A stretch of 26,502 nucleotides of DNA from a virus. Below the pieces are notes generated by a model. The model had not been told where the DNA came from, searched no databases, and saw only the letters and a list, made by a program, of their open reading frames with translations. The position numbers and the translations under genes were made by a program. The stretch lies in IMG/VR virus record IMGVR_UViG_3300032304_001382, positions 1-26,502 of that record. One strand, given 5' to 3'. The first letter of the stretch is position 1. The number at the start of each line of letters is the position of its first letter. Positions 12,702 to 22,668 of this stretch are shown here, piece by piece.

Positions 12702-12903
12702 GCCAGAGCCACTAGACGAACCTGAATGGGTGTTCCCCTACGAGTTTATGAACGTAGGGGATAGTTTTTTCGTCCCAACAATGCGCCCACGGCACATGGT
12801 CTACATCATCGACGTCACATCTAAAAAAGTGAAAGTGAAGATGAAGGCTTACCCCCGACACGAGAACGGCGTTCTCGGTGTCAGGGCGTGGCGCATGAAT
12901 TAG
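12682..12903 (+). CDS. Small hypothetical protein, 73 aa
   Basis: The gene begins inside the end of the primase-helicase (20-base overlap), behind a modest GAAGAGA. The product MSKKPSEPEPLDEPEWVFPY is followed by MNVGDSFFVPT, a lysine-rich strand IIDVTSKKVKVKMKAY and an ending GVLGVRAWRMN. The vGdSFfVP plus terminal GvRvWR-like pattern recurs in small phage proteins, probably a compact beta-rich fold of unknown role. It ends tail-to-tail with the giant minus-strand gene, their stops overlapping by 4 bases, and closes the plus-strand operon. Confidence 0.65.
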   Translation: MSKKPSEPEPLDEPEWVFPYEFMNVGDSFFVPTMRPRHMVYIIDVTSKKVKVKMKAYPRHENGVLGVRAWRMN

Positions 12904-15900
12904 GGCTTAATCTCGTACACCTCAAACATGTTTATCAAGTTGCGCTTAACGAGGTTCTGCGCCTGAACGATATTTTTCACAATATCTGTACGTTCTTTTG
13001 GCGTCAGCCCCTGCATCCTGCGGTACACGTTTGCTTGCTCACGCAAGTTGCGTAGTGTTTGGTTCACTTGCTCGTCGTACATCTCCACCGCCGCGATGTG
13101 CATGGGGTTGTCCTCAACGTATTTCGCGTACCGGTCAGGGCTGTTCTCCGCAAGTGAGTTAAGCCTTTTCTTTATATCCAAGACTTGCTTTTCCACGTTC
13201 GAGAACTCACGAGCGTCGATGTTGGACGGTGCGCCAAAGAAACTGTCGAACACCAAAGTGTCTGTCTTCGGATTGAACTCTTTGTCCCCCGTAGCCACAA
13301 GAGCGATGTTGTGCGCACCGTGACCCAGACGAGTCAAACCGTCGAGGTAGCTGTTGGCAAAGAAGTACAAAGTATTTGGACTCCAGTCAACACTGCCGCT
13401 TGTAACCTCATACAACGTACGGGCCGCAGATTTATACAACTCGGGTATGTTGTCGCCGCCTGTATACGCATCGCCATACCGCGACTGCCTGTTGTTGTAA
13501 ATCTGACGACCCAAACCATCCACGTTCATAGTCCACTCAAGGAACGGACGCAACGAACTTGGCAGCGCTGAATCCATCAGCCATGCGGCTGGTTGATCCA
13601 TTGGGTTAATCCGTGAAACTGGCAGAGGCAAGAACGAGTCCATGCCAATCAGCATCGTGTTAGTCAGCGCATCTTTGACGGAAGTATTTCCAAGACCAAC
13701 CGACGCTATCTGCGCCCCCGCCGCTGCAAACGCGCCAAGACCGAAGCCCCAAGGCAACTGCAGTGGTGTATCAAAACCGGGGATAAAGAATCTAGCGTAA
13801 CGCGACCAACGAGCGGAGTCATCAGTCGCTACTTTGTTGCGACCTTGATCGTCATCGTCAGCCAGCATGTACGCCATGCCATAAATAGCCGCGCCCATAC
13901 CCAGCAAGCCCAAAGACATAGCTTGAGCGGACTGCTGCCGTTTCTTGTACTCAGCTTTGAATTTTTCTACAGCTTGTTTGTCGCTGCGTACAGACAAAGG
14001 TAGATCAGCCATAGCAGATTCAACGCTACGCAAAGATGGCTCCAACGCCTCGATTGCTCGCACCGCGCCAGTGGCGGCAGGGCGGAAGAACATGAACATC
14101 GCGCCAGCGGCACGGCCCCATTCACCGACTTGCTCAAAGTTGGCTAGGTTTTTAGCGTACCCAGCGGCTTTAGTTTTAGCATCTTCCTCACTCATGCCTT
14201 GCGCCATGAACTGCGATTTAGACACTTGATACGCCGCTGCTCGACTGGCCAATTCAAAACTATCAACCCAGATGTCCAACACCTTGTCGACCGCAGCTTT
14301 GGCTTTTTTGATATTGCCACTGCTCAAGTCGCGCTGAAGTTCTTTCTGCTGTGACTTAGACGAGATACCCTGCAGGTACGACACCTTGCCGCCTTTTTGG
14401 ATGTACTCATACATGTCAGCCACATACGGGTCTTTAGCAGCCAGCTTTTCGATCTCAGCAAAATTACCCGACTCGTACAGACGCGCTACGTTACCGGCTT
14501 TGAACAGACCGCCCGTAGCTACTTTTGCCGAGATAGCGCCGATGTATTGCGCCGCAGCTTTTGGACCCATCTCCGCGCCGATAGTAAAAGCGTTGGTCAG
14601 CGCGTCGCGTACAAAGTTCATTGGCCCGAACGCTATGTTGTAGCGGGTGTGCATTTGACCAATCGTGCTTGTGACGGTGTTGAGCGCATCAATCAGCGGC
14701 TGCGACTCTTGGTATGTACGCTTGATAGCTTCGCGCTGTTCTTTGTCACTCAGCAAAATGATGTCAACTGAACCATCTGCGTTGTAGTGATACACGTAGT
14801 TGGGGCCGCTGTATTCTTGCAAAGCTGCTTTGTAACGATCAGCAAATGGGATCGTTGCTTTTACTTCGCCATACAACAGACGCTTCTTGGGGTCTTTGTC
14901 TTTGACTGAGTTCTTGATGGCAAGAGTTACATCCTTGCGTCCAGCACGCATAGCGGCCCGAGTCGCATCAGTCATAGACTGCAGCAGCGAGTTGTCGGAG
15001 TCAGTCTCACGACCCTCAAACGAGTATTGTTTATCTTGCAGTTCAGTGCCAAGACGTGGGCCATCAAATGTCAGCAGATCGTCATTCGTGCCAACAAAAT
15101 GCTGTTTACCTTTGAGCGGTACGTAGTTATCCCAGCCATAGAAGTCAACCACGCTCTGCACAGGCTTAGACCAGTAGTTGGATTCTTTATCCAACTTAGT
15201 AGTAGCGTTATGCAGCTTCTGCAAAGATTTCATTGCTTTGTCTACAGCCGCTTTCGTCTTGTTGTCCTTGCTTGTGTACAAAGCTTCTGTAACGCGCTCC
15301 ATATCAGCAGGGGAGTAGCCGCCGATCACGTTGTACTCCGACGAGTCACGATCCACAGATTTATACCCGCCCGGCTCAGCGCCATTGATGCCTGAGAAAC
15401 CTGTTGGGTCAGCGTACTTGGCCACAACATCGTTCAGCGCAGTACGTAGGTCTTTAATCTGGCCAGCATCCAACTTGCCAGAGAAGACAGCTTCCATCGC
15501 ACGGATACGGAATTCAGACGGCGCAATGTTGAGTTTTGTACCGTCAGGCAGTGTGATTGCTTGCTTGTCTTTGTTCAACGGTACGTTGAGCATGTACTTC
15601 ACATCACGGCGTTCACCCTCGTGCCGCGCCATGCCAATCACGTGCAAGTCACGGGTGGCTTCGTCTACAGTTTTGCCGGTTGCTTTTGCGTATTCGTTGA
15701 TGGCGTTACGCAAGTCGGAAGCAGCTGGCTCCACTTCGGTCAAGTACAAATCTTTGGCGCGACCAGACGACAAAACAATCTGGGTGTACACGTCGTTCAG
15801 GTCACCACCACTGTAAATAATCTTGCCCGCGCCAGACAGCGCGTCTTCCCAACGCTTGATAGCGTCACGGCTGTTTTGAAACTTTCTCTTCAGAAGGTTG

Positions 15901-18900
15901 TACGCTTTGCGCGTGCCGTAGTGCTTACGGATGTTGGACACCGTAGACAGTTCAGGCAGCTCGTTGCGTTTGAGAATTGCCTCGACTGAGTTGTCTTTAT
16001 CTTCCGCTTTATTGCGTTCCTGCTTTGCGTACAGTTCAGAACTAACAGTCTCTTTACCGGCAAGAGCCGTGATGCCGCCTTCTGGCGCTTCCATAATCTG
16101 TTGAACGGCAGCAGCAACTTCAAGCAGGAGGTTGCCCCTGTATCCGGGCTCGCGCAGAACTGCTCGCTGCAGGTTGGTAATGCCGCGCTCAGAAACCATC
16201 TCTCCCGGTTCAGCGGGGATGGTAGCTTCGTTTGCTTCTTTTTCTGGGTCATCAAACAATGTTTCAGGGGCGAGGGCTTCTTGCTCCTCCGCCGTCATCT
16301 TGCGCTGTTCAGTATCTTTAACGGGAGCGATTTTCTTATCAGAATCTACCCGCTTGCCGACTCTTGTTTTTTCAGTCGGCAACAAAATTTTGGTCTGCTG
16401 CTGTTCTGGACGGAACAGCTTATACATCCATGCTAGCGTGCCAGTGAACGCATCCCACAGAGATTCAAACAGCATGGGAGGCTCAGTGACGCGACCAAGA
16501 CCACGTTCTATTTCAGCTTCTGGTGCAATCGCAGCCAGTGCGTCAGCTTTTTCACCGGTCTTTCTAGTAGCGCGGGCGATACCCGGCACTTGCGCTTTGG
16601 CCAGCTCGTTCTGGAAGTTCAGATCGGTGAGCGCATAGGCCACAAACTCGTACAGGTTTTCAAACGCATTTGGGAAGCGCGTGCCCATGATGCGCTTGGC
16701 GTATGACGCAATCGTCTGAATCTGTTCCACCGCAGCAATCTGCCGTGCATCCAGCTTAGTCTTGTCAGTAAAGAACTGATGGATGATTTTTACAGTAGCT
16801 GCGTGAGTAAGCTCGTGCAGAATCGTAACTTCATCTAGTCCGTTTGGGCCGACATACAGTGTGTTTGTATTGGCATCGTACCGGGCAAGTTGGTCGTAGA
16901 CCATGTTCTTGTCGAACACAACGTTGACCTTGAGACCCTCTACGTTAGCCAGCGCACCAGCAAGGGAGCGGAAGACTTTCTGGGCGACGGTATCTCGGAT
17001 TTTTACTTTGCCTTGACCAAGTAGACGCGCGGTCTTGGTATCCAGCCCTTGCCCGTCTTTGTTCAAATAGTTCAAAACGCCAGCAATATCGCCTCGCCCG
17101 AGCATTTTGAGTACGTTGAGGGGGAGAATTGCGCCCTTGCCTTCTCCTTTTTTAGAACCACCCGGCTGTGCTTTACGAGCGCGTTCGGCAGCGGCTTCCA
17201 TTTCTTGTATGGAACGGCGCTCAGCCTCCTCAATCCCAAGACGGGAACGCTCTTGCTCCTGTTCCTTCTGTACCTGCTTTTTAACGGCACGGAATGCCAT
17301 ATCCTGCTCAAGTACAGTATCGGTTTTGTTGATTGATGCGTATGCGCGTTGGCTTTCTCCGGACAGACTGCCCCAGTTTGGCAACTCGTATGCGATACCC
17401 GCCTTACGACTGAACGCAAGGCGCTCACGCTGATAAGAGTCACCAGCACGCACTAAGTCTTGGGCTTCACGGCGTTGCGGCTCTGAAGCCTTTTGCGGAA
17501 CACCACGTTTAGTCGCCCTGCGCGTGGCTTCTTCTGATTCAGTCCGTTTGGACTCAATGTAATCAGACAGGCTTTCAGCAGCACGCTCGTGCTCATCCCA
17601 ACTATTGCGAGAGATGTTCTCTTGAAAGTACTTAATTTTTTCGTCAGGAGTCAGGTTGTCAAACTCTGGCAGCTTTTGAGTCTCGTCCTCAACTCCTTCG
17701 TTAAACCCTTCACGCATCTCCTCGTACATTTCCCGTTGTTCAGTGGGAACAGTGATAGGCTTTTTACCTACGAGAGATTGTTTGGCGATAAGTTGATCTT
17801 CGATAGCCGCAAGTGGCTCACCTTCTTCAGTGGTACGGCGTACAAACTCTTGTTCAGCCGCGCGACGTTCCGCCGCAGCAAGTTTTAAGCGATTTGCAAG
17901 TTGTTGGGTACTCTCCCCGTCCATACGAACGAGGCCGTAATCAGCCGCCATAGAGTCAATTTTGGCGTCAATTTTTGCTTGCTCAGGCGTAACAGCAGCG
18001 CTACCACGTGAGGGGAGCCCATCGTCTCCTAACAAAGAGTTAAGGAACGCCTCGTCTGCGTCGAGCTTAGTCTTGCGTGTAGTCGCAGTTACTGTTGGGG
18101 CTGCGGCTGGTTTTTGTCCTTGCGTTTCTGTTTGCTGGGCTTGAGAGGTTTGAGCGCCACGCGGAATCTCCTTGAGGGTACTAGCTTCAGTTGGGGTCAG
18201 TTCAAAATTAAAAGTAAATCCCTGCTTTACGCCTTGGTCGGCGTAGTCAGGATTGTTTACTCTAGGATCATTAGTAGGTAAGTCTGTATATAGCAGTGGT
18301 AAATCTGGGCGGTAGTTTGCAGCATAGTCTCGGCTTGTGCTGGCCCAACGCCCGGTTTCACCTTCGCCTTTTTTACCACTGTGATACACACGAACGTAGC
18401 CTTCAGGTACTGGGGGCTCAACATTCACTGCAACGGGTTTTCGTCCTTCTCCTTCATTAAGCACGTCAACATTCTGTCCAGCAGGAACCATTCCATCTCG
18501 TTCAGGTGCGACAGTTCCTTCGGTGGTGGGAAGTTCAGTGGCTGGTCGTGCAGATACTTCAGTGCTTGCTCCACCTGCTGGTTGTCCAGTTCCTGCAGCA
18601 TCTTCTTCTCCTGTTGGTTGGCTCTGGATAAGCGCATCAATTTTCGCCTTCAGTTCCTTTTGCTTACGTCTTTTTCCGTGAAGTATCCCTCTTTCCGTGC
18701 CGTTCAGAGTAACACCACGAGCTTCTAATTCCTTGATTTCAGCTTCGCGCTTGTTGTAATCAGCTACCAACGCGTCAATGTCGGGGCTGGTTTTTGGCGC
18801 AGGCTTATCCGCAAATAAACTCTCTAGCGTGACGGGGGCTTCAGGTGCGGGAGCTGGCTGCAACTCTTCAATTTTTTGCTGCTCTGTTGTCTCTGTAGTA

Positions 18901-19952
18901 GGAGGAACAACTTCAGGCGTCTTTGCCCGTCCAGCTAGCAAGCCCGCTCCGCCGCCCATACCCGCAGCGCCAAGTGTGGCCATAGCAGCAGTTTGTCCTG
19001 TTCCTGCCATAAGCTCGCGGTCAAGCCCGGCTTGCTGCGCAGCAACGTTTTGCGCAATGCGACCACCAACTTCTTCAATGTTTTCGCCGGGTATTTCTTT
19101 GAGACCAGTTACAGCCCCGGACACAAGGCGACTACCGCCAAGTTTTTTACCAGCCAAAACTTCTTCAAGCGCACTCGAACCCGGCAGATAACGGTTAGCC
19201 AGAACAGACAGCGCATAACCAGCTACACCAGCGGCGCGGGCTTTGTTGATTGTTTCGGCAGCTGCTTGTTCAGCCGACATGCCTTTGGCTGTGAGTTCTT
19301 TAAAAATCTCGTCGTAGGTTCCAGCGCCGACGTCCGTACCCTGCATTACGGCCCCAGTTTGGATCGCCGCTGTCGTACCAGCTTTAGTCGCCGCAATTTT
19401 TGCCGCTTCTGCCGCCGCTTCTTTTGTAGCCCCTTTAGCCAACTGAGCAGCAGTTGCACGACCAGCAGTGATAGCTGCAGTAGTGCCTCCGGTCAAAATC
19501 ATTGGCAGGAGTTGAGGTGTTTGCTCTGAGAGGAAAGACGAAAGAAGCGCTGGGTCTTTGATAGTCTCACCGAGTGCAGTTTTAAATGCTTCCCAGTTAC
19601 CTTGCTTTTCGGCTTCTTGGACCTTTACATCCCGCGCGGCTTCACGCGCTCGAAGTCCCTTGGACTTCATTTCTTCGCCGTACTTAGAAATGTTCTCGCC
19701 CAGCCCTAACGCGCCAGTTTTAGAGAAATCACCTGTGGCTAGGCCGTAGAGCTGCCCCGGCATTTGAACGAGCGAACCCGTGCCGGAAACCAAACCAGCA
19801 CCGACATCTTTCGCGGTTTCACCCCAAGTGCGTTCTTTAGGCGCTAAGTCTGGCCTTGCTCTAAGGATTCTGGCTTTTGCTTCTTGTGGAGTAACTTCAT
19901 CAGGGATGTTGTCGACCGAAGTACCATCTGGCAGGCGAATCGAATAGGCCAT
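12900..19952 (-). CDS. Giant polyvalent internal virion/ejection protein with HELTH metallopeptidase motif, 2350 aa
   Basis: AGGAT lies about seven bases before the start, 13 bases after the upstream stop. The N-terminus AYSIRLPDGTSVDNIPDEVT is a module common at the front of phage virion proteins. Residues about 100-345 are Ala-rich with hydrophobic stretches. Around 517-600, VRVYHSG, GRWAST and LLYTDLP suggest an ADP-ribosyltransferase-like fold. Long charged helices follow to about 970. HELTH at 1046-1050 is a zinc-peptidase HExxH site. The C-terminal third (from about 1765, FGPMNFVRDALTNAF, to the end) resembles the LPD38 type of polyvalent-protein domain and includes hydrophobic segments near 2010 and 2070. 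T7 gp16 (1318 aa) fills a comparable position. It is likely ejected with the DNA, digesting or crossing the envelope and acting on host targets; each activity is inference. Confidence 0.75.
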   Translation of the reverse strand: MAYSIRLPDGTSVDNIPDEVTPQEAKARILRARPDLAPKERTWGETAKDVGAGLVSGTGSLVQMPGQLYGLATGDFSKTGALGLGENISKYGEEMKSKGLRAREAARDVKVQEAEKQGNWEAFKTALGETIKDPALLSSFLSEQTPQLLPMILTGGTTAAITAGRATAAQLAKGATKEAAAEAAKIAATKAGTTAAIQTGAVMQGTDVGAGTYDEIFKELTAKGMSAEQAAAETINKARAAGVAGYALSVLANRYLPGSSALEEVLAGKKLGGSRLVSGAVTGLKEIPGENIEEVGGRIAQNVAAQQAGLDRELMAGTGQTAAMATLGAAGMGGGAGLLAGRAKTPEVVPPTTETTEQQKIEELQPAPAPEAPVTLESLFADKPAPKTSPDIDALVADYNKREAEIKELEARGVTLNGTERGILHGKRRKQKELKAKIDALIQSQPTGEEDAAGTGQPAGGASTEVSARPATELPTTEGTVAPERDGMVPAGQNVDVLNEGEGRKPVAVNVEPPVPEGYVRVYHSGKKGEGETGRWASTSRDYAANYRPDLPLLYTDLPTNDPRVNNPDYADQGVKQGFTFNFELTPTEASTLKEIPRGAQTSQAQQTETQGQKPAAAPTVTATTRKTKLDADEAFLNSLLGDDGLPSRGSAAVTPEQAKIDAKIDSMAADYGLVRMDGESTQQLANRLKLAAAERRAAEQEFVRRTTEEGEPLAAIEDQLIAKQSLVGKKPITVPTEQREMYEEMREGFNEGVEDETQKLPEFDNLTPDEKIKYFQENISRNSWDEHERAAESLSDYIESKRTESEEATRRATKRGVPQKASEPQRREAQDLVRAGDSYQRERLAFSRKAGIAYELPNWGSLSGESQRAYASINKTDTVLEQDMAFRAVKKQVQKEQEQERSRLGIEEAERRSIQEMEAAAERARKAQPGGSKKGEGKGAILPLNVLKMLGRGDIAGVLNYLNKDGQGLDTKTARLLGQGKVKIRDTVAQKVFRSLAGALANVEGLKVNVVFDKNMVYDQLARYDANTNTLYVGPNGLDEVTILHELTHAATVKIIHQFFTDKTKLDARQIAAVEQIQTIASYAKRIMGTRFPNAFENLYEFVAYALTDLNFQNELAKAQVPGIARATRKTGEKADALAAIAPEAEIERGLGRVTEPPMLFESLWDAFTGTLAWMYKLFRPEQQQTKILLPTEKTRVGKRVDSDKKIAPVKDTEQRKMTAEEQEALAPETLFDDPEKEANEATIPAEPGEMVSERGITNLQRAVLREPGYRGNLLLEVAAAVQQIMEAPEGGITALAGKETVSSELYAKQERNKAEDKDNSVEAILKRNELPELSTVSNIRKHYGTRKAYNLLKRKFQNSRDAIKRWEDALSGAGKIIYSGGDLNDVYTQIVLSSGRAKDLYLTEVEPAASDLRNAINEYAKATGKTVDEATRDLHVIGMARHEGERRDVKYMLNVPLNKDKQAITLPDGTKLNIAPSEFRIRAMEAVFSGKLDAGQIKDLRTALNDVVAKYADPTGFSGINGAEPGGYKSVDRDSSEYNVIGGYSPADMERVTEALYTSKDNKTKAAVDKAMKSLQKLHNATTKLDKESNYWSKPVQSVVDFYGWDNYVPLKGKQHFVGTNDDLLTFDGPRLGTELQDKQYSFEGRETDSDNSLLQSMTDATRAAMRAGRKDVTLAIKNSVKDKDPKKRLLYGEVKATIPFADRYKAALQEYSGPNYVYHYNADGSVDIILLSDKEQREAIKRTYQESQPLIDALNTVTSTIGQMHTRYNIAFGPMNFVRDALTNAFTIGAEMGPKAAAQYIGAISAKVATGGLFKAGNVARLYESGNFAEIEKLAAKDPYVADMYEYIQKGGKVSYLQGISSKSQQKELQRDLSSGNIKKAKAAVDKVLDIWVDSFELASRAAAYQVSKSQFMAQGMSEEDAKTKAAGYAKNLANFEQVGEWGRAAGAMFMFFRPAATGAVRAIEALEPSLRSVESAMADLPLSVRSDKQAVEKFKAEYKKRQQSAQAMSLGLLGMGAAIYGMAYMLADDDDQGRNKVATDDSARWSRYARFFIPGFDTPLQLPWGFGLGAFAAAGAQIASVGLGNTSVKDALTNTMLIGMDSFLPLPVSRINPMDQPAAWLMDSALPSSLRPFLEWTMNVDGLGRQIYNNRQSRYGDAYTGGDNIPELYKSAARTLYEVTSGSVDWSPNTLYFFANSYLDGLTRLGHGAHNIALVATGDKEFNPKTDTLVFDSFFGAPSNIDAREFSNVEKQVLDIKKRLNSLAENSPDRYAKYVEDNPMHIAAVEMYDEQVNQTLRNLREQANVYRRMQGLTPKERTDIVKNIVQAQNLVKRNLINMFEVYEIKP

Positions 19953-19965
19953 AAATTTATCCTAC

Positions 19966-22668
19966 TCAGGGAATGTCGTTGAAGTTGATTGAGCGTCCGC
20001 CGCTTGAAGCCCCACCGCCCAGTCCAATCTGGGCTGGATCAATGCCGTTGGCTCTAGCCTTAGCCGCAAGAGCTTGCTCAAGAGTTCTAATTTTCTCTAG
20101 AGTCTCAGGTTTTGGATTAGACGCGCCACGCAGAGCAGAAAGCGTGTTCAGTTCTGTTTTTACGCCCGGCAAGTTTTCAAACTTTTTGATATTTTCCAAT
20201 TCAAGGCCCGGTTTTCTGGTCTCACCAATTGTGGCCATAACTTCTTTAAGCTTAGCAGCTCTATTCGTATCCCCCGCCAAAACCGCTCTAGCGTACTCGC
20301 CGTTCAAGTCAAACGAACGCCCTTGCTTAGACCGGGCATTTGCACTTTGCTGTTCAAACTGCGAAATACCAACCTTGATCTGGTTGTCCACCATCTTAAG
20401 CGCGGTATCGTAGTTGACCTTGAACATCTCCATGTTCGCTTTAACGCGATCTTCTTTAGCGCTGATAAGCGTAGTTTTAATCTCGTTTTGAAGCTTAAGT
20501 TTCTCACGAGCAGTCAACTCACCGCGCTGGGCTTCCAACTCCTCCAGACGGTCACGTGCATCAGCCAGTTTTTCTTTGGCCGAGTTGATCTTGTCCAAGC
20601 CAGCCATGTACTGCTCGGTACCCATTTCAGCAGCTGCGCCAAGGCTCTTACCGGCAGCGATGCCTGCGCCTAACTTAAAAATGGCTGCGCCCAAGTTTGT
20701 GGTGCCCATTTTTTCAATGTCAGTCTCTTTAGCTTTTTGTCGCTCTTTTCTGCCTTTGTAGATGTCATCAAACTTGCTGTGGATAGCCTCAAGCCCTGCG
20801 GCTTCCGCTTCTTTAGCTTTTACTTTTTCGTCACCAATTTCTCTAATATCTTTTTCAAACGGGTGAGGTTTCCCGCTAATACCCGCCAGCGCCTGATCTG
20901 TCAGTTTCTTAACATCGAGCCCCGAGTAGCCACTAGGCATGCCAATACCGCCAGTATCGCCAGCGTTGTTCATGGGCACAGGAGGTTTTTCTGCCCCGGT
21001 GTTTCCCGGAGAGTATGGCATTGGAGCGCCGTACACGCCGGGGTCTTTCCGTGCGGTTTGCTCAGATTGATTCAGGAGTTCGCGGTTAAGCGTGTTTGGA
21101 GCAGATGCAGGCGCAGCGCTTTGCCCGTCGACTGTGGGGGCCATAGTTCTGCGGCGAGCCAACTCCGCATCTTCGCCTTCGCCTAACTCACCGTGGTAAA
21201 GGCCGAGCCCATACCCAGCTAAACCAGCGGGGTTAACGGGGCGAAATAAATTGCTGCCCGCAGTTTTTGCTGCTTGTGCCGCACGCGCCGCAGGTGGGTT
21301 TGTTGGCTGAGACATGGTAGAGCGCATCATGTCTTTAATTTGATTCTGAGTTTTTGCCGGGGCTTGCGTAAACTCTTCTGGAGTTATGCCCATCTTCTTC
21401 AGGAAATCAATCAACTCAGCTTGTGGGTGAACCCGTGGAGAGCCACCGCCAGCAAACGCAATGATGCCACCATCAGCAAAGTTCATATCTCCAGCAGGCA
21501 ACTGGCCGATGCCTTGCTCTTCAGGCAGGGTTTGCGCTCCGCTACGCAAGGCGGCGCGGGATGCCATTTCTTGCTGGATAACGTTGGCTTGTTCTAAGTC
21601 ACCACGAGCTTGGGCCGCAGCCATCGCTTGCTGCAACTGCGCGTCTGACAAATTATCTGCAATAGATTGGATGCTTTCTGGGCTATCAACACTACCGCCC
21701 GCAGCGTATGCCGAGGCAAGGCCACCTTCTTTAAAACCGAATCTGCCGCCACTGCCGAGATACGCGCCGCCCAGCATAGTAGCTGCGCCGAGCAATTGGC
21801 TACCGGTCGAAACGCCGGGGTTGTATACAGATGTAGTTGACCCGTACGGAGTACCACGCATGATGTTGGACATGAACTCCAACTGCTGATATGGGTACTT
21901 CTGCTTGTTGAGGAAGTCCTCGTAGCCTTGAGAGAGCTTGGCCTGCTCTTGTGTTTGCTGCTGTGCGCCAGCCAACTGCTGCAAGCCGATAACGTCTTTT
22001 TGCTGGCCGAACTGAGTAGCACCCAAACCGCCCAACTGCGAGGCACCAGACAGTGCTGTCTCCAAACCCTTCATACCCAGATTTGCGCCGTACTGACGCG
22101 AGGCTTCGCCCAAGGCTTGCTCGGTGTTGAACTGCTGTTGAGCGCGGGTGTAAGCATCCTGCAAACCACGGGCTTGAATGTCACCCTTCTGGGTGGCCAA
22201 GTTGCGAGCTGCTTCTGCGTCCACAATGGCCTGACGGCTACCGCCAAACGCACCATACTTCACTGCATTTGCATTGCTCTGGGTGCGGGCAATGTCTGCG
22301 GTACGTTGGGCTTCACGTTGCTGGATGTCCACCACATTCTGCATGTAGGGGTCCATGTACTGACCAGCCTGAGCGCCAAACTGACCTGTTTGGTAAGGGT
22401 TGTACGAAGTGTTGAGCGCACGACCAGTAGCTTGTCCAGCAACGTCAATACCCTGACCGATAGCGCCCGAAGTACCCATATTTTGGATACCTTGAAACGC
22501 TTGCTGCTGCATCGGGTTAAATTCCGCAATGCGCTGGCCTTCGTACTCTTTGTACGGGTTCTGCGTGGTGTCAGTCAGCGCCGTGGCTTTGCCCAGCTGC
22601 GTCTTAGCCGCCTCTTCCATCCAAGGAGAAAGGGTGCTGGTGTTTGTTGAGGTTGATCCGCCGCTCAT
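19966..22668 (-). CDS. Internal virion/DNA ejection protein, 900 aa, glycine-motif type
   Basis: GGAG about eight bases before the ATG is a good ribosome site, and the start overlaps the previous stop. The N-terminal third is Gln/Ala/Gly-rich with a segment SNANAVKYGAFGGSRQAI and long helices, as in internal-core proteins of podoviruses. Two glycine motifs follow: GFKEGGLASAYAAGGS near residue 310 and MNFADGGIIAFAGGGS near 396. A Pro-rich linker (about 455-600) leads to a C-terminal helical region (about 610-860) with a strong coiled coil around KLADARDRLEELEAQRGEL. It lacks enzyme motifs. Position between the GNAT-like gene and the giant gene mirrors T7 gp14/gp15, so a scaffold or channel role in DNA ejection is inferred. 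Confidence 0.65.
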   Translation of the reverse strand: MSGGSTSTNTSTLSPWMEEAAKTQLGKATALTDTTQNPYKEYEGQRIAEFNPMQQQAFQGIQNMGTSGAIGQGIDVAGQATGRALNTSYNPYQTGQFGAQAGQYMDPYMQNVVDIQQREAQRTADIARTQSNANAVKYGAFGGSRQAIVDAEAARNLATQKGDIQARGLQDAYTRAQQQFNTEQALGEASRQYGANLGMKGLETALSGASQLGGLGATQFGQQKDVIGLQQLAGAQQQTQEQAKLSQGYEDFLNKQKYPYQQLEFMSNIMRGTPYGSTTSVYNPGVSTGSQLLGAATMLGGAYLGSGGRFGFKEGGLASAYAAGGSVDSPESIQSIADNLSDAQLQQAMAAAQARGDLEQANVIQQEMASRAALRSGAQTLPEEQGIGQLPAGDMNFADGGIIAFAGGGSPRVHPQAELIDFLKKMGITPEEFTQAPAKTQNQIKDMMRSTMSQPTNPPAARAAQAAKTAGSNLFRPVNPAGLAGYGLGLYHGELGEGEDAELARRRTMAPTVDGQSAAPASAPNTLNRELLNQSEQTARKDPGVYGAPMPYSPGNTGAEKPPVPMNNAGDTGGIGMPSGYSGLDVKKLTDQALAGISGKPHPFEKDIREIGDEKVKAKEAEAAGLEAIHSKFDDIYKGRKERQKAKETDIEKMGTTNLGAAIFKLGAGIAAGKSLGAAAEMGTEQYMAGLDKINSAKEKLADARDRLEELEAQRGELTAREKLKLQNEIKTTLISAKEDRVKANMEMFKVNYDTALKMVDNQIKVGISQFEQQSANARSKQGRSFDLNGEYARAVLAGDTNRAAKLKEVMATIGETRKPGLELENIKKFENLPGVKTELNTLSALRGASNPKPETLEKIRTLEQALAAKARANGIDPAQIGLGGGASSGGRSINFNDIP

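What the first reader, a model, noticed from the sequence alone, without database searches (positions are those of the whole stretch)
12900..19952. 2350-residue polyvalent protein carrying HELTH peptidase motif, ART-like segment and LPD38-like C-terminus
One gene takes over a quarter of the window. It combines a virion-type N-terminus, hydrophobic segments, a segment with VRVYHSG/GRWAST/LYTDLP that resembles ADP-ribosyltransferases, an HExxH zinc site at 1046, and a long C-terminal module. A phage could deliver this whole set into the host with its DNA as a multi-enzyme weapon. The combination, especially ART-like plus metallopeptidase, deserves experimental attention.
Basis: partly seen in the sequence, partly recalled or inferred. 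Interest (0 to 1): 0.65.

Follow-up and report, generated by a model that had tools for sequence, protein, structure and literature searches.

The report
Giant phage ejection protein with zinc-peptidase
A huge phage protein, probably packed in the virus particle and pushed into the bacterium with the DNA, contains a well-supported zinc peptidase domain and a small exchangeable cassette that only resembles an ADP-ribosyltransferase; it belongs to a known class of phage 'polyvalent' proteins, but the cassette itself is in no family library searched here.

Summary
The gene is real: 2350 codons at 12900-19952, minus strand, with a true LPD38 C-terminus (E 6.6e-16). The zinc-peptidase claim holds. 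HELTH at 1046 has a third ligand, Glu1102, conserved in all 33 aligned zincin relatives; the AlphaFold model (pLDDT ~90) resembles mini-gluzincins, and the profile finds the HExxH domain of the ejected N4 virion RNA polymerase (E 1e-5). HExxH occurs in 65 of 65 distinct full-length relatives collected by their C-termini, although two zincin types replaced each other at least 7 times. Of 78 family members with a readable upstream gene, 71 have a homologue of the window's 'DNA ejection protein' there. This points to an ejection protein; packaging itself is not shown. The ART-like segment (511-600) is a genuine ~90-residue cassette, found in some two dozen viral contigs in otherwise different giant proteins, under purifying selection, and absent from the nearest relatives. 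That it is an ART is unproven: no library or profile match is significant; only motif order, predicted strands and an H-to-R swap in distant plasmid copies point that way. Verdict: a known kind (polyvalent proteins, Iyer 2017) with an unnamed optional cassette; 'multi-enzyme weapon' is partly supported.

The parts
12900..19952 (-). 2350-residue giant protein, LPD38 family, probable ejection protein
   Evidence: family of relatives; purifying selection
18903..19952 (-). N-terminal region, residues 1-350, conserved among close relatives (70-82% identity)
18153..18422 (-). ART-like cassette, residues 511-600; H524, S538-T539, Y543, Y547, D557 invariant
   Evidence: (pLDDT ~95); absent from L002 and L129
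17013..18152 (-). helical middle region, residues 601-980, exchanged together with the zincin
16593..17000 (-). zincin (gluzincin-type) peptidase domain, residues 985-1120
16803..16817 (-). HELTH, residues 1046-1050, zinc ligands H1046 and H1050, general base E1047
16647..16649 (-). Glu1102 in EFVAY, predicted third zinc ligand
12903..16100 (-). C-terminal module, residues 1285-2350, almost all helical, includes LPD38
13308..13808 (-). LPD38 domain, residues 2049-2215
19966..22668 (-). upstream 900-residue gene, PHROG 4287 'DNA ejection protein'; homologue upstream in 71 of 78 relatives

Best explanation
The gene encodes a giant internal ('ejection') protein of a phage. I infer that it is packed in the head with the product of the gene just upstream and pushed into the host ahead of or with the DNA. 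The conserved N-terminal region and the ~1065-residue helical C-terminal module are the delivery part. Between them lies an exchangeable payload region: a helical stretch plus a gluzincin-type zinc peptidase (H1046, H1050, E1102; general base E1047) and, in this phage, an extra ~90-residue ART-like cassette in a flexible linker. The mechanism I think most likely (about 0.4, given ejection) is that the peptidase acts at or after delivery by cutting the polypeptide itself, so that the inner part and the payload separate; cutting a host or cell-envelope protein is the main alternative. The cassette would then modify a host molecule, perhaps by ADP-ribosylation (0.35). Shown here: gene, zincin fold and ligands, LPD38, cassette, mosaic exchange, gene order. 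Inferred: packaging, ejection, self-cleavage, any activity of the cassette.
For: PHROG 4287 'DNA ejection protein' gene directly upstream, homologue upstream in 71 of 78 relatives. Zincin: HExxH plus Glu in all rows, model pLDDT ~90, fold hits to small metallopeptidases, profile match to N4 vRNAP E ~1e-5 and to the ejection protein gp48 of 8vb2 E 2.9e-4. N4 vRNAP is ejected and has the same order, HExxH domain then a large helical domain (PMC12633501); phiKMV gp37, the gp16-like ejection protein (PMC8954989), has the same HExxH...E domain. HExxH kept in 65/65 although the zincin type was swapped at least 7 times, which argues for a needed active enzyme.
Against: No virion proteomics or infection data; the link to N4, phiKMV and 8vb2 rests on the zincin alone. 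The C-terminal module has no detectable relative of solved structure and no link to the phiKMV gp37 C-terminus was seen. N4 vRNAP is packaged uncleaved (PMC5512222), so self-cleavage is not general. Only one clearly transmembrane-like segment.
Confidence: 0.6

Rival explanations
1. One reading: a two-enzyme weapon, with an active ADP-ribosyltransferase (511-600) and a zinc peptidase that cuts host proteins.
For: Module motif order and predicted strands resemble ARTs; plasmid relaxase copies have R in place of H524, as between ART clades; true ART-PolyVal domains lie upstream of the same zincin in L088-L090; ARTs are the commonest protein-modifying domains of polyvalent proteins (PMC5512222).
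Against: ART-PolyVal E 0.1 in one of 26 members; hhalign probability 1-5%; no PDB profile match; third ART residue not identified; module absent from all 65 C-terminally collected relatives, so not needed by the family.
Confidence: 0.2
2. The zincin works during assembly, trimming the protein before or inside the capsid, as inferred for P1 DdrB, and is not active in the host.
For: P1 DdrB is cleaved before packaging and has a zincin (PMC5512222).
Against: N4 vRNAP with the related domain is packaged uncleaved (PMC5512222); frequent swapping of zincin type fits an interchangeable payload better, though not exclusively.
Confidence: 0.2
3. The cassette is not an enzyme, or is another enzyme class, for instance a binding domain or a distant deamidase-type fold.
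For: Best Pfam match of the module is CNF1, E 0.0053, 16.5 bits against a cut-off of 25, in 5 of 26 related members; strong conservation of non-ART positions such as the GFTFNFE stretch.
Against: No cysteine in any of the 26 aligned modules, which rules out a CNF-type Cys-His deamidase; the match is below cut-off and its members are not independent.
Confidence: 0.4
4. The HExxH domain is a structural relic without peptidase activity, as could be the case in an architectural ejection protein.
For: No peptidase activity of the N4 domain was found in the passages read of the N4 structure paper, which notes the HExxH motif only (PMC12633501).
Against: H, E, H and the third Glu are kept in every aligned relative and HExxH in 65/65 despite fast divergence and type swapping.
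Confidence: 0.15

Closest known systems
Polyvalent proteins of phages and conjugative elements (Iyer et al. 2017, PMC5512222)
   Same: Many unrelated domains in one huge polypeptide, zincin-like MPTase as hub, LPD38, ART plus MPTase combinations described
   Different: The ~90-residue ART-like cassette matches no library entry; backbone with obligatory but exchangeable zincin not found described
N4 virion RNA polymerase, C1 and C2 domains (PMC12633501)
   Same: HExxH zincin domain (profile E ~1e-5) followed by a ~1,100-residue mostly helical region; virion protein ejected into the host
   Different: No RNA polymerase in the window protein; no sequence match between C2 and the window C-terminus
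phiKMV gp37, gp16-like ejection protein (PMC8954989)
   Same: HExxHAA...Glu-[FL]-V-A-[YW] zincin; follows another ejection protein gene
   Different: 1337 residues, no ART-like cassette, C-terminus not detectably related
ART-PolyVal (PF18760)
   Same: Similar motif order (YHGT...GIYLT...AxxY) and the same place upstream of a zincin in L088-L090
   Different: No significant profile similarity; ~90 against 140 positions; no third catalytic residue assigned

Membership tests
Polyvalent proteins | Several functionally unrelated domains in one phage polypeptide, including an LPD | tested here: met
   zincin, LPD38 and the cassette
Polyvalent proteins | Packaged and injected into the host | not testable with these tools
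   only gene order supports it
LPD38 (PF18857) | Score above the curated cut-off | tested here: met
   59.4 bits against 27
Zincin-like MPTase of polyvalent proteins | HExxH on the first C-terminal helix and a Glu on the second | tested here: met
   H1046, E1047, H1050 and E1102; all 33 rows
Zincin-like MPTase of polyvalent proteins | N-terminal helix, three strands, two helices; homology to the N4 vRNAP domain | tested here: met
   secondary structure of the model; profile E ~1e-5 to N4 vRNAP
Zincin-like MPTase of polyvalent proteins | Zinc-dependent proteolysis | not testable with these tools
   needs protein
ART superfamily | Significant profile match to an ART family | tested here: inconclusive
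   ART-PolyVal E 0.1 in 1 of 26; hhalign probability 1-5%
ART superfamily | H or R in strand 1, Y or ST in strand 2, acidic or Gln residue in a late strand | tested here: inconclusive
   H524 and W536/S538/T539 fit; R replaces H in L217 and L218; third residue unclear
ART superfamily | ART fold | tested here: inconclusive
   module pLDDT ~95, but folded within a long construct and barely covered by the search
gp16-like ejection proteins | Last large gene of an ejection gene cluster | tested here: met
   directly downstream of the PHROG 4287 gene; 71 of 78 relatives
gp16-like ejection proteins | Homology beyond the zincin | tested here: inconclusive
   no link between the C-termini found, with a single-sequence template

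The most novel reading that the evidence does not exclude
The ~90-residue cassette is an undescribed minimal ART-type (or other) effector family that moves between unrelated giant phage proteins and, in diverged form, conjugative relaxases, often beside or even inside a zinc-peptidase domain that could release it after delivery.
Probability: 0.3. Interest if true: 0.6.

Novelty: new variant of a known kind. Interest (0 to 1): 0.42.

Why it matters
It extends the idea that phages deliver protein payloads with their DNA. A delivery backbone stays constant while the peptidase type and an extra cassette are exchanged, which gives a natural comparison for asking what these zincins cut and what the cassette does. 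The cassette is absent from Pfam, PHROGs and NCBIfam as searched here although it occurs in some two dozen viral contigs. phiKMV gp37, in a tractable laboratory phage, carries the same peptidase domain, so its role can be tested directly.

Tried and rejected
Pfam, PHROGs and NCBIfam on the whole protein found nothing besides LPD38. A search with the whole protein found a single relative because of pattern choice; module-wise searches were needed. PDB profiles of the cassette gave nothing significant. The sub-threshold CNF1 match was rejected for lack of any cysteine. Cassette as a host gene: only 2 loci in the bacterial genome collection. Recent horizontal copy: rejected, since protein identity exceeds DNA identity and G+C follows the local genome. 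The C-terminal module gave no informative fold match, no PDB sequence match and no link to the phiKMV gp37 C-terminus. BFVD hits named 'ART-PolyVal-like' were not used as evidence, because the aligned stretch may be the zincin. A Pfam scan of the linkers of 71 relatives found no enzyme cassette, only one MORN and one DUF5525 match. No ART chain appears among the VIA rows, which is not evidence against an ART fold. A paper search for internal virion metalloproteases found none with all terms.

Full report
What is there. The coordinates are right and the gene lies on the minus strand: 12900-19952 encodes 2350 residues. Pfam sees one domain, LPD38 at 2049-2215 (E 6.6e-16, 59 bits against a cut-off of 27). 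PHROGs and NCBIfam see nothing in it. The 900-residue gene directly upstream matches PHROG 4287, 'DNA ejection protein' (E 1e-19), and the 647-residue gene further upstream a virion structural family. The record is a 26.5-kb viral contig.

Relatives and architecture. Searching module by module recovered a large family in viral contigs. The C-terminal ~1065 residues retrieve 119 relatives, 79 loci kept; the zincin retrieves 157, 80 kept. Of 78 family members with a readable upstream ORF, 71 have a homologue of the PHROG 4287 gene there, nearly all within 13 nt (an iterated profile, so composition may have helped a few). Against its nearest relatives the protein is a mosaic. Versus L002 the N-terminal 350 residues are 78% and the C-terminus 87% identical, but the middle and zincin only 27-40%. 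Versus L129 the middle is 90% and the zincin 93% identical, with dS 0.48 in the middle against about 1.1 in the C-terminus. Neither relative has the ART-like segment. So the middle has been exchanged by recombination, and the ART-like segment is a separate insertion or loss.

The zinc peptidase. Relatives share HExxHA and a Glu about 56 residues later in EFxAYxLTDxxFQ. In the alignment used for folding, H1046 and E1102 are matched in all 33 zincin rows. AlphaFold gives a helix, three strands, the HELTH helix and the helix that carries E1102, at pLDDT about 90. The leading Foldseek PDB hits are mainly small metallopeptidases (selecase, jannalysin, abylysin) and IrrE-like regulators, with SPRTN and MATCAP lower; E-values are weak, 0.1 and up, as the query is long. 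VIA-align adds SPRTN (Z 5.5, rmsd 7.2, 79 residues) and N4 vRNAP 2127-2356 (Z 5.0, rmsd 4.8, 132 residues); these Z are middling. The sequence profile is the strongest evidence: N4 vRNAP with E about 1e-5 and an ejection protein gp48 with E 2.9e-4 (its phiKMV-type hit is expected, since phiKMV gp37 was in the alignment). This is the domain that Iyer et al. recognised in N4 vRNAP (PMC5512222). Among 65 distinct full-length proteins found by C-terminal homology, all have HExxH. Most are of the HExxHA...E type; 14 of an enlarged set of 88 are of an HExxHxxxDH type. On a C-terminal tree the type changes at least 8 times, 7 forced by strongly supported branches (FastTree, some long branches). The slot is always filled, but by exchangeable peptidases.

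The ART-like segment. Residues 511-600 form a discrete module found in 28 viral loci, some near-duplicates, and 2 loci of the bacterial genome collection. In the carrier proteins examined it sits at very different positions. Protein identity (67-85%) exceeds DNA identity (63-75%) and local G+C is followed: old and constrained, not a recent copy. Across 26 members R521, H524, S538, T539, Y543, A544, Y547 and D557 are invariant. Its model is very confident: strands 519-525, 535-538, helix 541-547, strands 553-559, 582-585, 594-596. The order H in strand 1, [W/Y]xST in strand 2 and AxxY in the next helix is that of ARTs (my knowledge of the family; compare the ART-PolyVal rows). Distant copies in plasmid relaxases have R for H, as between ART clades. 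True ART-PolyVal domains lie upstream of the same zincin in L088-L090 and occur together with the module in L007 and L014. Against this, no test was significant: ART-PolyVal E 0.1 in one member, hhalign probability 1-5% with score 21.0 against a best of 18.8 in 60 shuffles over 17 columns, no PDB profile hit. I call it ART-like, with about 0.35 probability of being an ART.

How it probably works. Two studied virion proteins share this zincin. N4 vRNAP is ejected into the host, and its HExxH domain is followed by ~1,125 mostly helical residues (PMC12633501). phiKMV gp37 is the gp16-like ejection protein (PMC8954989). The window protein has the same order, zincin then ~1065 helical residues, and a matching gene setting. 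The simplest reading is an ejection protein with a peptidase payload. Whether the peptidase cuts its own chain or a host protein is not decided by sequence; Iyer et al. discuss both, with P1 DdrB cleaved before packaging and N4 vRNAP uncleaved (PMC5512222). Catalytic residues kept while peptidase types are swapped argue for an active enzyme.

Novelty. Injected polyvalent proteins, LPD38, and ART plus zincin in one phage protein are known (PMC5512222; PMC9503650 for virion-packaged ARTs). Not covered by the libraries searched is the ~90-residue cassette, and I did not find the obligatory yet exchangeable zincin slot described. I rate it a new variant of a known kind.

Noticed in passing
L018:436-546 (Xanthomonas phage 10KY502B) and L216:3001-3195: A distant copy of the cassette lies between the HExxH helix and the following E-rich helix of another zincin; the same region in L015 is uninterrupted, so the cassette seems inserted inside the peptidase domain.
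   Followed up: partly
L217 and L218 (Rhizobium and Agrobacterium plasmids): Relaxase-LPD7 proteins carry a diverged cassette (tblastn E 0.02-0.07) with R in place of the invariant H.
   Followed up: partly
L003:3913-12660: A 2916-residue polyvalent protein combines the cassette, the zincin, an HSP90/HATPase_c-type domain, a second HExxH (HEMAH, 1809) and LPD39.
   Followed up: no
window:22665-23069 minus: A 134-residue ORF between virion genes matches PHROG 22172 weakly (E 1e-3, unknown function) and looks like an acetyltransferase (GNAT) by eye; untested.
   Followed up: no
alignment A8, linkers of 71 relatives: One relative carries MORN repeats between the N-terminal region and the zincin.
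   Followed up: no
L141, L150, L159, L162, L164, L176, L178, L181, L191-L193, L199, L202: A second zincin type, HExxHxxxDH, replaces the HExxHA type in front of the same C-terminal module.
   Followed up: partly
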